From assembly GCF_014137995.1 (NCBI RefSeq), contig NZ_JACGWV010000003.1:682001-746000 (forward strand): DNA of 64,000 bases. Direction: 5' to 3'. Source of the DNA: Promicromonospora sukumoe (GTDB lineage: Bacteria > Actinomycetota > Actinomycetes > Actinomycetales > Cellulomonadaceae). Positions 15,516 through 57,834 of this stretch are shown here, piece by piece. Below the pieces are notes generated by a model that had not been told where the DNA came from, made no database searches, and was given only the letters and a program-made list of their open reading frames with translations. The stretch's first letter is position 1. Every line of letters begins with the position of its first letter. A program made the position numbers and the translations under genes.

Positions 15516-15561
15516 CGTGTCAGACGTACAGGTCCCTCGGGGGACCTGTACGTCTGACACG
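15516..15561. repeat. Palindromic element, copy 1
   Basis: Perfect 21-bp arms (15516-15536 and 15541-15561) around TCGG. The arm contains GTGTCAGAC, then GT in the variable position, then ACAGGTCCC. It lies 7 nt after the rplQ terminator and 13 nt before the stop codon of the convergent ROK gene. Three further copies exist in the window. Confidence 0.95.
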
Positions 15562-15574
15562 GGGCGCGAAGGGG

Positions 15575-16333
15575 TCAGGATGGGGGCAGGTCCCAGGCCC
15601 GGGCGCCGCCCACCAGGGCTGCCGAGTTGGGCACGATGACGACGTCGTCGCCCAGGCGGGCCAGCGCCGACGGCGTGATGCACCGCGCGTTGCCGCCGCC
15701 GATGTAGAGCCGGTCCCAGTGGAAGACCGGCCGCAGCCCGTCGACGACGGTGACCACGCGGCGCGACCACAGCCCGTCCCCGAGCCGGCGCCGCTCGGGC
15801 TCGCCGATGTACTGGTCGTACGTGAGGCTCCGGCGCACGGGTGCGTGCGACCACTCCAGGTGCGGCGCGATGCGGCCGCCGTGGAACATCGCCGTCCCGA
15901 GACCCGTACCGAGCGTGATCACGAGCTCCAGGCCCGACGCCGCGACCACCCCGGCGCCGTGCACCTCGGCGTCGTTCAGGACGAGGGCGGGCAGGCCGAG
16001 CCGCGCGGCGACCGCCGCCTGCATGTCGAAGCTGCTCCACGCGTCCTGGAGCGCGGGGACCACCCGCGAGCGTGGCCCCGACCTGGTGATGTAGTGCGGC
16101 GTGTGCACGACCACGCCGCTGCGGATCATGCCCGGCATGCCGACCGTGACCCGCGCCGCGGCCGGGAGGTCCGTGGCGATCTTCGCGATCGTGTCGACGA
16201 GCAGCTCGGGCGGGAGCGGGTACGGCGTCGGCACCCGGACGGGCGTCGCGTGCGCGGTGCCGGAGGTGTCCAGGACGGCCGCCTTGATGCCGCCGCCGCC
16301 ACAGTCGACCGCCAGCGTGAGGGTGTCTGCCAT
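15575..16333 (-). CDS. ROK-family kinase, polyphosphate glucokinase-like
   Basis: A 252-residue sugar kinase of the ROK family, closest in layout to actinobacterial strictly polyphosphate-dependent glucokinases, which phosphorylate glucose from polyphosphate or ATP. Visible motifs: the phosphate-1 loop VDCGGGGIKAAVLD, VTVGMPGMI, the catalytic-Asp stretch LVLNDAEVHGAG, the phosphate-2 loop TLGTGLGTAMFHGG, and EWSHAPV in place of the EFGHLEV of known PpgK. The substitutions around the last motif mean that substrate and phosphoryl donor should be tested. ATG at 16331-16333 has a TACAGT box 6 nt upstream. Divergent from truA. Confidence 0.85.
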   Translation of the reverse strand: MADTLTLAVDCGGGGIKAAVLDTSGTAHATPVRVPTPYPLPPELLVDTIAKIATDLPAAARVTVGMPGMIRSGVVVHTPHYITRSGPRSRVVPALQDAWSSFDMQAAVAARLGLPALVLNDAEVHGAGVVAASGLELVITLGTGLGTAMFHGGRIAPHLEWSHAPVRRSLTYDQYIGEPERRRLGDGLWSRRVVTVVDGLRPVFHWDRLYIGGGNARCITPSALARLGDDVVIVPNSAALVGGARAWDLPPS

Positions 16334-16339
16334 GACGTC

Positions 16340-16345
16340 ACTGTA
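16340..16345 (-). promoter_or_regulatory. -10 box of a leaderless start (ROK kinase)
   Basis: On the minus strand TACAGT ends 6 nt before the ATG; no Shine-Dalgarno sequence is present between them. Confidence 0.5.
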
Positions 16346-16381
16346 CGAACCCCGGGGCGGGTATCGGGGAAGATGGCTGTC

Positions 16382-17290
16382 GTGAACGACTTCATCCGGG
16401 TCCGCCTCGACCTCGCCTACGACGGCACAGACTTCGCGGGCTGGGCGCGCCAGCCGGGCCTGCGCACCGTCGAGGGCGCCCTGGAGGACGGGCTCGCCCG
16501 GGTCCTGCGCAGCGAGCAGCTCGGCAGGCCGACGCCCCGGTTCACCGTCGCCGGCCGCACCGACTCCGGCGTCCACGCGCGCGGCCAGGTGGCGCACGTC
16601 GACATCGCGGCCGACGCCTTTGCGGCACTGCCCGGCAGGTCGGCGCGCACCGGCCGCACCCCGGGCCAGGCCCTGGTCTCGCGGTTCGGCGGCGTGCTCC
16701 CCGGCGACGTCGTCGTGCGCCGGGCCACGCCCGCGCCCGCGGGCTTCGACGCCCGCTTCTCCGCGCTGCGCCGCCGCTACACCTACCGGATCGCCGACGA
16801 CGTCGCGCTGCGCGACCCGCTGCGCCGCCGGCACGTCCTGTGGTCCCGCAAGCCGCTGGACGTCGAGGCGATGGACGCCGCCGTGCGCCCGCTGACCGGG
16901 GTGCGGGACTTCGCCTCGTACTGCAAGCCACGGCCCGGCGCCACGACCATCCGTGAGCTGCAGCGCATCGCCTGGGAGCGGCCCACGGACGGGCCCGACG
17001 CCGGGCTCGCGGTCGCGCACGTCGTCGCCGACGCGTTCTGCCACAACATGGTCCGCGCCCTGGTCGGTGCGTCCATCGCGGTGGGGGAGGGGCGCCGGCC
17101 CGGGAGCTGGCCCGCGGACCTGCTGGCGAGCAGGCGGCGGGACGCCGGCGTCTTCGTGGTGCCGCCCGAGGGGCTGTGCCTGGAGGAGATCACGTTCCCG
17201 CCGGACGCCGAGCTCGCGGCCCGCGCGGACGCCGTCCGGACCAAGCGGATGGACGAGGACGTCTGGGACGAGCAGGTGGTGGGACCCTGA
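16382..17290 (+). CDS. truA: tRNA pseudouridine(38-40) synthase TruA
   Basis: Isomerises U38-U40 in the anticodon arm of tRNAs. The 302-residue product has RVRLDLAYDGTDFAGWARQPG, the catalytic-Asp motif AGRTDSGVHARGQVAHVD, and RYTYRI and FCHNMVRALVGASIAVGEGRR near the end. GTG 16382 is preferred because GGGGAAG ends 9 nt upstream; ATG 16373 would sit directly against that site. A glycine/proline-rich insert (residues about 85-105, PGRSARTGRTPGQALVSRFG) is longer than in E. coli TruA. In many actinobacteria truA also follows rplQ, but here the ROK gene intervenes. Confidence 0.95.
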   Translation: MNDFIRVRLDLAYDGTDFAGWARQPGLRTVEGALEDGLARVLRSEQLGRPTPRFTVAGRTDSGVHARGQVAHVDIAADAFAALPGRSARTGRTPGQALVSRFGGVLPGDVVVRRATPAPAGFDARFSALRRRYTYRIADDVALRDPLRRRHVLWSRKPLDVEAMDAAVRPLTGVRDFASYCKPRPGATTIRELQRIAWERPTDGPDAGLAVAHVVADAFCHNMVRALVGASIAVGEGRRPGSWPADLLASRRRDAGVFVVPPEGLCLEEITFPPDAELAARADAVRTKRMDEDVWDEQVVGP

Positions 17291-56184: not shown

Positions 56185-56239
56185 CGCACGCCTCGGGCCG
56201 GTACCACTGCCCGGCCGAGATCTGCGGTCGCGGCGGCCG

Positions 56240-56245
56240 TAGACT
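56240..56245 (+). promoter_or_regulatory. -10 box of a leaderless start (guaB)
   Basis: TAGACT ends 6 nt before ATG 56252, with TTGCTG between. Confidence 0.6.
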
Positions 56246-56251
56246 TGCTGC

Positions 56252-57766
56252 ATGACGGACCAGACCTCGCCGGGCGACCCGTTCGGTTTCCTCGGGCTCA
56301 CCTATGACGACGTCCTGCTGCTGCCGGGTTACTCCGACCTGGCGCCGTCGGACATCGACACGACGTCTCGCCTGACGCGCGAGATCTCGCTCAAGATCCC
56401 GCTGATCTCAGCGGCGATGGACACGGTCACCGAGTCGGCCATGGCGATCGCCATGGCGCGTCAGGGTGGCCTCGGCGTACTGCACCGCAACCTCTCGATC
56501 GAGGACCAGGCGACCCAGGTCGACCTCGTGAAGCGGACGCAGACCGGCATCATCACGAACCCCGTCACGATCGGCCCGGACGCCACGCTCGAGGAGCTCG
56601 ACACCCTCGCGGGCCAGTTCCGGATCTCGGGCTTCCCGGTCGTCGACACCGAGAACAAGCTGATCGGCATGGTCACCAACCGCGACCTGCGCTTCACGCC
56701 CGTCGCCGAGTGGGCCACCACCAAGGTGGACGAGGTGATGACGCCGCAGCCGCTGATCACCGGCCCGTCCGGCATCTCGCGGGACGACGCCACGCTGCTG
56801 CTGCGCAAGCACAAGCTGGAGCGCCTGCCGCTGATCGACCCCGACGGCCGCATCACGGGGCTCATCACGGTCAAGGACTTCGTGAAGTCCGAGCAGTTCC
56901 CGAACTCGTCCAAGGACAGCCAGGGCCGCCTCATGGTCGGCGCCGCGATCGGCTACTTCGGTGACGCGTGGCAGCGTGCCACCGCCCTGATCGACGCCGG
57001 CGTGGACGTGCTCGTGGCCGACACCGCGCACGGCAACGTGCGCATGCTGATCGAGATGGTCAAGCGCCTCAAGACCGACCCCGCCACCAAGGACGTCCAG
57101 GTCATCGGCGGCAACGTCGCCACGCGCCAGGGCGCGCAGGCGTTCGTCGACGCCGGGGCCGACGCCGTGAAGGTCGGCGTCGGACCGGGCTCCATCTGCA
57201 CCACCCGCGTCGTGACCGGCGTCGGCGTGCCGCAGATCACCGCGGTCTACGAGGCGTCGCTCGCCTGCAAGCCGGCGGGCGTGCCCGTCATCGCCGACGG
57301 CGGCCTCAAGCACTCGGGCGAGATCGGCAAGGCCATCGTGGCCGGCGCCGAGTCCGTGATGCTGGGCTCGCTGTTCGCGGGCTGCGAGGAGACCCCGGGC
57401 GACCTGGTGCTCGTCAACGGCAAGCAGTTCAAGACCTACCGCGGCATGGGCTCGATGGGCGCCATGTCCTCGCGCGGCAAGAAGTCCTACTCCAAGGACC
57501 GGTACTTCCAGGCCGAGGTCACCAGCGACGACAAGATCGTGCCCGAGGGCATCGAGGGCCAGGTCGCCTACAAGGGCCCGCTGGCCACCGTGGCGCACCA
57601 GCTCATCGGCGGTCTGCACCAGACGATGTTCTACACCGGTGCGCGGACCGTCCCCGAGCTGCAGGCCGAGGGCCGGTTCGTCCGCATCACGTCGGCGTCG
57701 CTCAAGGAGAGCCACCCGCACGACGTGCAGATGACGGTCGAGGCGCCGAACTACAGCGGCTTCTGA
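56252..57766 (+). CDS. guaB: Inosine-5'-monophosphate dehydrogenase
   Basis: NAD-dependent oxidation of IMP to XMP, the committed step to GMP. The 504-residue TIM barrel carries the catalytic Cys316 in [15 protein letters not shown], the two CBS domains between about residues 105 and 225 ([41 protein letters not shown]), and the flap [20 protein letters not shown]. The sequence is entirely standard. It is followed by palindrome copy 4, the only terminator-like structure before the convergent amine oxidase gene. Confidence 0.98.
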
Positions 57767-57788
57767 CTCTTCCGTCGAACCCGCACCA

Positions 57789-57834
57789 CGTGTCAGACCC
57801 ACAGGTCACCCGAGTGACCTGTGGGTCTGACACG
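57789..57834. repeat. Palindromic element, copy 4
   Basis: Perfect 21-bp arms (57789-57809 and 57814-57834), 22 bp if A57788/T57835 are counted, around CCGA. The variable positions are CC and A, with the matching GG and T in the other arm. It lies 22 nt after guaB and 19 nt before the stop of the convergent oxidase gene. Confidence 0.95.

What the first reader, a model, noticed from the sequence alone, without database searches (positions are those of the whole stretch)
15516..57834. A four-copy family of near-perfect palindromes with compensating base changes
Copies at 15516-15561, 25676-25719, 43233-43276 and 57789-57834 share GTGTCAGAC-NN-ACAGGTC-N-C in one arm and its exact complement in the other. 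Arms differ at three positions only (GT, CC, CT, CC and C, C, C, A), and every difference is matched in the opposite arm. Such covariation shows that pairing itself, not just sequence, is kept, either as an RNA hairpin or as a symmetric protein site. Four copies in 42 kb suggests many in the genome. I do not recognise a described element with this sequence.
Basis: seen in the sequence. Interest (0 to 1): 0.78.

Follow-up and report, generated by a model that had tools for sequence, protein, structure and literature searches.

The report
Dispersed gene-end palindromes in Promicromonospora
A soil bacterium carries hundreds of copies of a 44-48 letter mirror-image DNA repeat, mostly just after the end of a gene and sometimes inside genes; it behaves like a small spreading element that folds into a hairpin, and it is one of several unrelated hairpin families that fill the same gene-end places in related species.

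Summary
The four palindromes are real and exact. They belong to a family (F1) with 72 copies in one 1.58-Mb contig of the window's genome, about 300 genome-wide by extrapolation. The genus is Promicromonospora: all 13 genomes held match, and almost nothing outside does. Arm positions 10-12 vary but stay complementary in 62 of 74 copies. Position 19 mispairs in 25 of 74, so full compensation holds for the four window copies only. Copies sit a median 13-17 nt from stop codons and avoid divergent gaps. They lack the downstream T-enrichment of the genome's one-off hairpins. At least four lie in frame inside genes. An empty site in a congener shows presence/absence without target duplication. No RAYT/Y1 transposase or PF00078 reverse transcriptase was found in the genus. 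F1 is the largest of at least seven groups of gene-end palindromes, and orthologous slots often hold unrelated ones. Best reading: an untagged, REP/RPE-like dispersed palindrome that persists at gene ends, where its RNA would form a very stable hairpin. Mobility is supported by comparison. RNA function and the mobilising enzyme are not shown.

The parts
15516..15561 (.). F1 copy 1: arms 15516-15536 and 15541-15561, loop TCGG, triplet GTA. Lies between a ribosomal L17 gene (ends 15444, +) and an ROK-family gene (15575-16333, -), convergent.
   Evidence: (-44.5 kcal/mol)
25676..25719 (.). F1 copy 2: triplet CCA, loop TCGG. Between an ACPS-domain gene (ends 25669, +) and a luciferase-like monooxygenase gene (25727-26776, -), convergent.
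   Evidence: (-52.1 kcal/mol)
43233..43276 (.). F1 copy 3: triplet CTA, loop CCGA. Between a pseudouridine synthase gene (ends 43221, +) and an alanine racemase gene (43313-44548, +), tandem.
   Evidence: (-45.4 kcal/mol)
57789..57834 (.). F1 copy 4: triplet CCA, A-T at position 19, loop CCGA. Between an IMP dehydrogenase gene (56252-57766, +) and an amine oxidoreductase gene (57854-59467, -), convergent.
   Evidence: (-48.2 kcal/mol)
15461..15508 (.). Native hairpin after the ribosomal L17 gene, beside F1 copy 1. Present (shortened in G005) in the orthologous gap of all 7 congeners that could be compared; F1 is the extra, variable element next to it.

Best explanation
F1 is a dispersed palindromic repeat of the REP/RPE kind: 44-48 bp, 20-22 bp arms, 4-nt loop, no terminal tag. 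It spreads as a unit within Promicromonospora and persists mostly where it does little harm or some good, right after stop codons. There the transcript would fold into a very stable hairpin, which probably blocks read-through from the neighbouring gene and/or protects the mRNA 3' end in both directions, as proposed for REPs and for actinobacterial 'I-shaped' (no U-tract) hairpins. SHOWN: family, genus restriction, copy number on one contig, gene-end placement, presence/absence at an otherwise alignable site without target duplication, in-frame copies inside two genes, decayed and intact versions in congeners. INFERRED: that it moves by insertion rather than being lost by precise deletion; that the hairpin acts at the RNA level; that positions 10-12 stay paired because the folded form is what is copied or kept. 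NOT KNOWN: the enzyme. It is neither a Y1/RAYT transposase nor a reverse transcriptase of the PF00078 type encoded in these genomes.
For: 72 copies in C2, 69 of them with 2 or fewer mismatches, few intermediates before background. Context on C2, after setting aside 11 of 72 that overlap called ORFs: convergent 21, tandem 37, divergent 3, against 8.6/31.5/20.9 expected by intergenic length (chi-square p 4e-8); median distance to the stop 17 nt (tandem) and 13 nt (nearest stop, convergent); in 15 long tandem gaps 11 copies lie within 30 nt of the stop, uniform placement gives 1.8. Empty site: F1 at C2:692427 present in G000 and G010, absent in G006 with 88% flank identity and no duplication; tree (G006,(G000,G010)), support 0.995. 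In the window, F1 copy 1 is an addition beside a conserved hairpin. In-frame copies: one in a methyltransferase gene linker, three in an ABC transporter linker, with recognisable or decayed copies at the same place in several congeners. All 13 genus genomes match covariance model R1 at E <= 0.001, at most 150 candidates scored per genome; outside the genus 3 of 56 genomes have 2-3 weak hits at E <= 1e-6. A full-length pattern with a constrained centre, run over the genome-contig collection (84,980 species), gave 21 stretches, all Promicromonospora. Of 14 own F1 slots comparable with G006 or G010, 8 have F1 (intact or decayed, partly judged by eye) in at least one of the two. Copies are cleaner here (63 of 72 with 0-1 mismatch) than in the fetched segments of G006 and G010 (7 of 17). 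Window hairpins fold at -44.5 to -52.1 kcal/mol, z -8.4 to -10.1.
Against: No mobilising enzyme found; only two enzyme families were searched. In the own genome nearly all copies are pristine, with few intermediates, which fits selection or homogenisation as well as a recent burst. Gaps that hold a palindrome of any family here hold an unrelated palindrome in relatives more often than other gaps do, related pairs left out (G010: convergent Fisher p 0.009, tandem 0.019; G006: 0.06 and 0.31), which argues for a hairpin function of the place. Of 68 spanning flank matches for 33 palindromes (all families), 8 were compact and only three of these read to me as clean indels. A precise deletion in G006 would explain the best empty site as well.
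Confidence: 0.62

Rival explanations
1. F1 is primarily a functional bidirectional terminator or 3'-end hairpin whose sequence is fixed by a factor that recognises TGTCAGAC and CAGGTC; spread is by selection and gene conversion, not by an element of its own.
For: Position right after stop codons and near-absence from divergent gaps; extreme conservation of positions 2-9 and 13-18 with free but paired 10-12; palindrome-holding gaps tend to hold an unrelated palindrome in G010.
Against: No U-tract: T in the 10 nt downstream 0.174 against 0.259 after one-off hairpins; 4 or more T in 8 nt in 2 of 27 against 9 of 29. No clear G-U bias on the transcribed strand (F1 3:3, other families 6:6, one-off 5:11; F1 6:4). 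Copies inside reading frames. An extra copy beside a conserved terminator-like hairpin. Absence in a congener at an alignable site.
Confidence: 0.22
2. F1 is a symmetric double-stranded DNA binding site for a chromosome-organising or regulatory protein.
For: Perfect dyad symmetry, invariant half-site blocks, spread over the contig.
Against: Spacer positions 10-12 covary, which a duplex site does not require. Placement follows gene ends. Hardly any lone half-sites: 120 of 123 GTGTCAGAC on C2 lie in elements.
Confidence: 0.07
3. F1 is a DNA uptake-type signal that pairs up as terminators, as in Neisseria.
For: Inverted pairs of a repeated 9-mer at gene ends resemble USS terminators (PMC1852404, passages read).
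Against: Uptake signals occur generally 1,000 or more times per genome (same passages); here 120 of 123 9-mers on C2 are inside palindromes.
Confidence: 0.03

Closest known systems
REPs, GTAG and CGTC super-families (Di Nocera et al. 2013, PMC3733652; abstract, passages and one section read)
   Same: Short palindromes in many copies, mostly between convergent or unidirectional genes, close to (under 20 bp in the convergent case) 3' ends, some inside genes; several families per genome; very different counts between related species; CGTC REPs also lack a known transposase.
   Different: No unpaired GTAG or CGTC tag at one end; stem 20-22 bp instead of 5-13; single palindromes rather than head-to-head dimers; no Y1/RAYT gene in the genus; the word start Actinobac- does not occur in that paper's main text.
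Rickettsia palindromic elements (described in the MITE review PMC10969869 and in PMC3733652; passages read)
   Same: Palindromes inserted in frame in protein genes.
   Different: RPEs are about 150 bp by that review and very often intragenic; F1 is 44-48 bp and mostly at gene ends (5 of 72 on C2 deep inside called genes).
I-shaped intrinsic terminators of mycobacteria (review PMC12288462; passages read)
   Same: Hairpin without U-tract within 50 bp of the stop codon.
   Different: The passages describe them as a shape, not as a repeated sequence family; termination by F1 is untested, and two titles in that review's reference list disagree on whether a U-tract is needed.
Stem-loop sequence families in bacterial genomes (PMC2267715; abstract and outline read)
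   Same: Repeated, foldable, mostly intergenic families.
   Different: A catalogue of 40 genomes; whether any of its families equals F1 was not checked.

Membership tests
REP (GTAG/CGTC) | Unpaired GTAG or CGTC motif at one end | tested here: not met
   148 ends of 74 copies: GTAG within 6 nt outward at 4 ends; ends that continue as ACACGTC 41 of 148; the two sides are alike (49 left and 50 right ends of 74 continue with GT, both sides in 36).
REP (GTAG/CGTC) | Placement next to gene 3' ends, convergent and unidirectional | tested here: met
REP (GTAG/CGTC) | RAYT (Y1 transposase) in the genome, for GTAG REPs | tested here: not met
   PF01797 in 0 of 13 genus genomes; 5 of 14 control genomes positive.
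Rickettsia palindromic element | In-frame copies in protein genes | tested here: met
   Four copies in two genes, methyltransferase and ABC transporter, with orthologues; a fifth intragenic copy (C2:494837) was not compared.
MITE | Target-site duplication | tested here: not met
   None seen at C2:692427 (F1), at the F1-variant site in G002, or at the F9 site in G008. Duplications of 1-2 bp cannot be excluded.
MITE | Parent transposon with the same ends | not tested
   Only PF01797 and PF00078 were searched.
Canonical intrinsic terminator | U-tract after the hairpin | tested here: not met
   T 0.174 downstream against 0.152 upstream, n 27; one-off hairpins 0.259 against 0.128, n 29.
I-shaped terminator | Hairpin within 50 bp of the stop, no U-tract | tested here: met
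   Anatomy only, for the typical copy: 90th percentile of stop distance 49 nt in 37 tandem copies; termination itself not testable with these tools.
DNA uptake sequence | Many single copies, also in genes | tested here: not met
   3 of 123 9-mers on C2 outside elements.
Rfam families | Match at gathering score | tested here: not met
   0 in the window.

The most novel reading that the evidence does not exclude
Promicromonospora has a way of dispersing long perfect palindromes that uses neither a Y1 transposase nor a reverse transcriptase. At least seven unrelated palindrome families compete for, and replace one another at, the same gene-end slots, so that the hairpin of a gene end is kept while its sequence is exchanged. 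The folded strand is what is copied, which keeps the arms complementary.
Probability: 0.22. Interest if true: 0.78.

Novelty: new variant of a known kind. Interest (0 to 1): 0.55.

Why it matters
REP-like palindromes are best known from proteobacteria and, for the GTAG type, are tied to RAYT transposases. Here a high-GC actinobacterial genus carries several unrelated long palindrome families at gene ends and in reading frames, with no such enzyme, and with different families at orthologous slots. That makes two open questions testable: how transposase-less palindromes spread, and whether gene-end hairpins can be swapped like cassettes.

Tried and rejected
RAYT: searched genus-wide, none. Reverse transcriptase PF00078: none. 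DUS-like half-sites: 3 of 123. Flank pairing beyond the element: at most weak (third and fourth base outside the core, 31 and 32 of 74 against 24.2 shuffled; one further position, 30 against 19.6; most others near chance), so the hairpin ends near ACGT...ACGT. Wobble test for RNA-level selection: no clear bias; small numbers, and the detection step penalises mismatches. A first loop pattern was wrong by one base and found almost nothing; corrected. A guess that the left block of the window was a prophage was dropped: it ends in a ribosomal L17 gene. A sigma-70/terminator consensus scan of window 42001-62000 did not list the F1 copies as terminators. Literature: nothing on palindromes in Promicromonospora judged from the titles of 9 listed papers. 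Other searches with little or no bearing, listings only. led to papers used here. 'Not in print' is not claimed beyond these searches. Gene calls come from my own simple codon-usage caller, so 11 of 72 copies that overlap called ORFs were set aside from the context counts. Families were grouped by shared 11-mers with single linkage, which may merge or split groups; some groups look mixed. 'One-off' hairpins are those that match none of my nine family motifs. The slot test is confounded by gap length. Most 'decayed' calls in congeners are by eye. The 21 named loci were used for titles and contig lengths only. The output was cut; one search lists the compact cases in full.
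Full report
OBSERVATION. Searching the window for the arm with up to 3 mismatches gives exactly the 8 arms, all perfect, against 0.73 expected. Each folds alone into a hairpin of 21-25 pairs, -44.5 to -52.1 kcal/mol, z -8.4 to -10.1. No Rfam family matches the window.

FAMILY. The window is C3:682001-746000 of a 6.51-Mb genome in 4 contigs. The exact arm occurs 121 times forward and 119 reverse, the reversed control 0. The core with up to 3 mismatches occurs 172 and 165 times; a symmetric copy counts on both strands. 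I fetched contig C2 complete (1,577,972 bases). It holds 72 copies within 9 mismatches of the fixed positions, 44 with none and 69 with 2 or fewer. The reversed sequence has nothing below 11; at 10-12 mismatches the forward strand has 1, 13 and 56 matches against 0, 2 and 16 reversed, so some decayed copies or other palindromes may hide there. That extrapolates to about 300 copies genome-wide. Of 123 GTGTCAGAC 9-mers on C2, 120 lie inside elements.

ARMS. On 74 copies (70 from C2, 4 from the window; two C2 copies with more than 5 mismatches dropped), positions 3-7, 15 and 20 are invariant in both arms and positions 2, 8, 9, 13, 14 and 16-18 nearly so. Positions 10, 11 and 12 vary but pair in 65, 69 and 72 of 74, against shuffled means of 37.1, 36.9 and 40.9. 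Ten concordant triplets occur, GTA the commonest (28); 62 of 74 copies are concordant. In 10 of the 12 discordant copies both triplets are ones found elsewhere in concordant form, so the arms look mixed from subfamilies rather than randomly mutated. Position 19 pairs in only 49 of 74 (37.0 shuffled). The structure count on alignment A1 (72 rows, 68 distinct) agrees in part: 94.0% of cells paired against 88.2 shuffled, 98 cells with changes on both sides against 43.6, covariation score 0.165 against 0.069; but pairs with a change on both sides (7 against 5.6, reached by 71 of 500 shuffles) and further pair types (17 against 14.9, 48 of 500) are not remarkable. Covariation is thus strong but confined to three positions plus a weak fourth.

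CONTEXT. With my own gene caller (1,285 genes on C2), 61 of 72 copies are intergenic: 21 convergent, 37 tandem, 3 divergent, against 8.6, 31.5 and 20.9 expected by intergenic length (p 4e-8). Median distance to the upstream stop is 17 nt in tandem gaps and 13 nt to the nearest stop in convergent gaps. In 15 tandem gaps with 150 nt or more besides the element, 11 copies lie within 30 nt of the stop, uniform placement 1.8. There is no U-tract: T in the 10 nt downstream is 0.174 (n 27), against 0.259 after one-off hairpins (n 29) and 0.238 after other families (n 21); intergenic T is 0.162. Discordant pairs on the transcribed strand are 3 G-U to 3 A-C for F1, 6 to 6 for other families, 5 to 11 for one-off hairpins; counted on 35 tandem F1 copies without the hairpin-score filter they are 6 to 4. 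So position says gene-end hairpin, while the two sequence tests for RNA-level optimisation are negative or undecided.

INSIDE GENES. Eleven copies overlap called genes. Six lie at the 3' edge and five are deep inside. Three, 108 bp apart, are in frame in the linker of an ABC transporter gene, and one is in frame just before the methyltransferase domain of another gene; the fifth was not compared. Orthologues were read in congeners. In the methyltransferase gene, an intact or altered F1 is visible in 5 of 9 readable genomes (G000, G010, G009, G001, G005); four were not readable. In the transporter, 7 of 11 loci were readable: F1 is plain in G000, G006 and G008, degraded by eye in G001, G005 and G011, absent in G012. 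A second family (F7, by eye) sits further on in the same gene.

RELATIVES. The exact arm is found in 8 of 99 genomes searched, own included: the own genome and 7 of 12 congeners, none of 86 others. A covariance model of 72 copies finds F1 in 13 of 13 genus genomes (at most 150 candidates scored per genome). Outside the genus it finds 2-3 weak hits in 3 of 56 genomes. A full-length pattern with a constrained centre over the named genome collection returned 21 stretches, all Promicromonospora. Copies are cleaner in this genome (63 of 72 with 0-1 mismatch) than in the fetched 180-kb segments of G006 and G010 (7 of 17), which suggests a recent expansion or homogenisation here.

ORTHOLOGOUS SLOTS. 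For the window I fetched the syntenic regions of 12 congeners, complete or in part, and for C2:640-860 kb those of G006, G010 and part of G001. Between the genes of window copy 4, twelve genomes show F1 in two (G000, G006), the family GGTCGAGCTTGTCGAGACC in four, GAGATAGAAC-type palindromes in G011 and by eye G009, other hairpins in G003 and, by eye, G008 and G007, and nothing in G001. Window copy 1 is an addition beside a hairpin conserved in all 7 comparable congeners; G002 carries a diverged F1 (by eye) and G008 another palindrome at that place. Window copy 2 is shared with G006 and, altered, G010, of 11 genomes compared. Window copy 3 is intact only here of 12 compared, with remnants by eye in G003, G005 and G008. 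Of 14 own F1 slots comparable with G006 or G010, 8 have F1 there in some state. The best empty site is C2:692427: G000 and G010 filled, G006 empty, flanks 88% identical, no target duplication. A 20-gene tree of 11 genomes puts G000 with G010 (0.995), so one insertion explains it; a precise loss in G006 also would. Of 33 palindromes (all families) with 68 spanning junction matches, 8 matches were compact and three of those read to me as clean indels: this one, an F1 variant in G002 and an F9 palindrome in G008.

MANY FAMILIES. A survey of C2 found 243 palindromes with an arm score of 14 or more, 213 intergenic. They occur in 100 of 231 convergent, 99 of 821 tandem and 5 of 232 divergent gaps. 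Single-linkage groups have 58, 22, 18, 12, 10, 9 and 8 members and fewer, with 46 singletons. One of them, GGTCGAGCTTGTCGAGACC, is in 10 of 13 genus genomes and in three other genera of the order among 54 genera sampled. Gaps with a palindrome of any family here tend to have an unrelated one in G010 (both/only here/only there/neither: convergent 6/0/6/11, p 0.009; tandem 3/5/4/69, p 0.019; gaps with related palindromes, 7 and 8, left out), less clearly in G006 (3/4/1/16, p 0.06; 1/8/2/67, p 0.31; 6 and 4 left out). This suggests that some gene ends favour or need a hairpin whatever its sequence; gap length is an uncontrolled confounder.

MECHANISM. I favour a REP/RPE-like dispersed palindrome that is kept at gene ends and folds in the transcript. 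Patchy presence, in-frame copies, an extra copy beside a native hairpin, missing U-tracts and lineage-specific expansion point to spreading. Gene-end placement and slot re-occupation point to use of the hairpin. A Y1/RAYT transposase and an RVT_1 reverse transcriptase were not found in any of the 13 genomes, with control genomes positive, so the means of spread is open. Mixed arms and paired changes at 10-12 could come from copying a folded strand; this is inference.

KNOWN KINDS. REPs show the same gene-end placement and intragenic copies (PMC3733652), but their defining end tag and the RAYT link were tested and not met, so I file F1 as REP-like, not as a REP. RPEs share the in-frame habit (PMC10969869). 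I-shaped terminators share the anatomy (PMC12288462). Uptake-signal terminators (PMC1852404) fail on half-sites.

CHECK. On re-reading the calls I corrected the G006/G010 clean-copy count (7 of 17), the meaning of the slot test (palindromes of any family) and the count of relatives with the exact arm; none of these changes the odds.

Noticed in passing
window 46532-46584: A 26-bp-arm, 96% complementary, AT-rich palindrome (GAACCTGCTAAACGTACTAATCTGAG) in a 1.16-kb gap whose length varies between about 0 and 1.28 kb among congeners.
   Followed up: no
window 49290-49370: Imperfect palindrome of a second family (GAGTGCGGGATATTCGCCC), intact in G006, degraded in G010, not seen in G002, G004 and G012.
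   Followed up: partly
contig C2 of the own genome (L031-L109): At least seven groups of long gene-end palindromes; several keep outer arms fixed while inner arms vary but stay complementary (for example GTTGAGTGCTGGGTATT..., group of 22).
   Followed up: partly
L040:11480-11739 (C2:191480-191739): Three F1 copies 108 bp apart in frame in an ABC transporter linker, plus a palindrome of another family further on in the same gene.
   Followed up: yes
C2:824827 slot, G000 and G010: Apparently orthologous copies with the same rare CAT centre; G010 has position 9 changed in both arms (C to G with its partner), a paired change at an otherwise nearly fixed position (by eye).
   Followed up: no
genomes G005, G010, G012, G035: GGTCGAGCTTGTCGAGACC is abundant, in G012 and G035 often without an exact partner arm nearby, unlike F1; it reaches other genera.
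   Followed up: no
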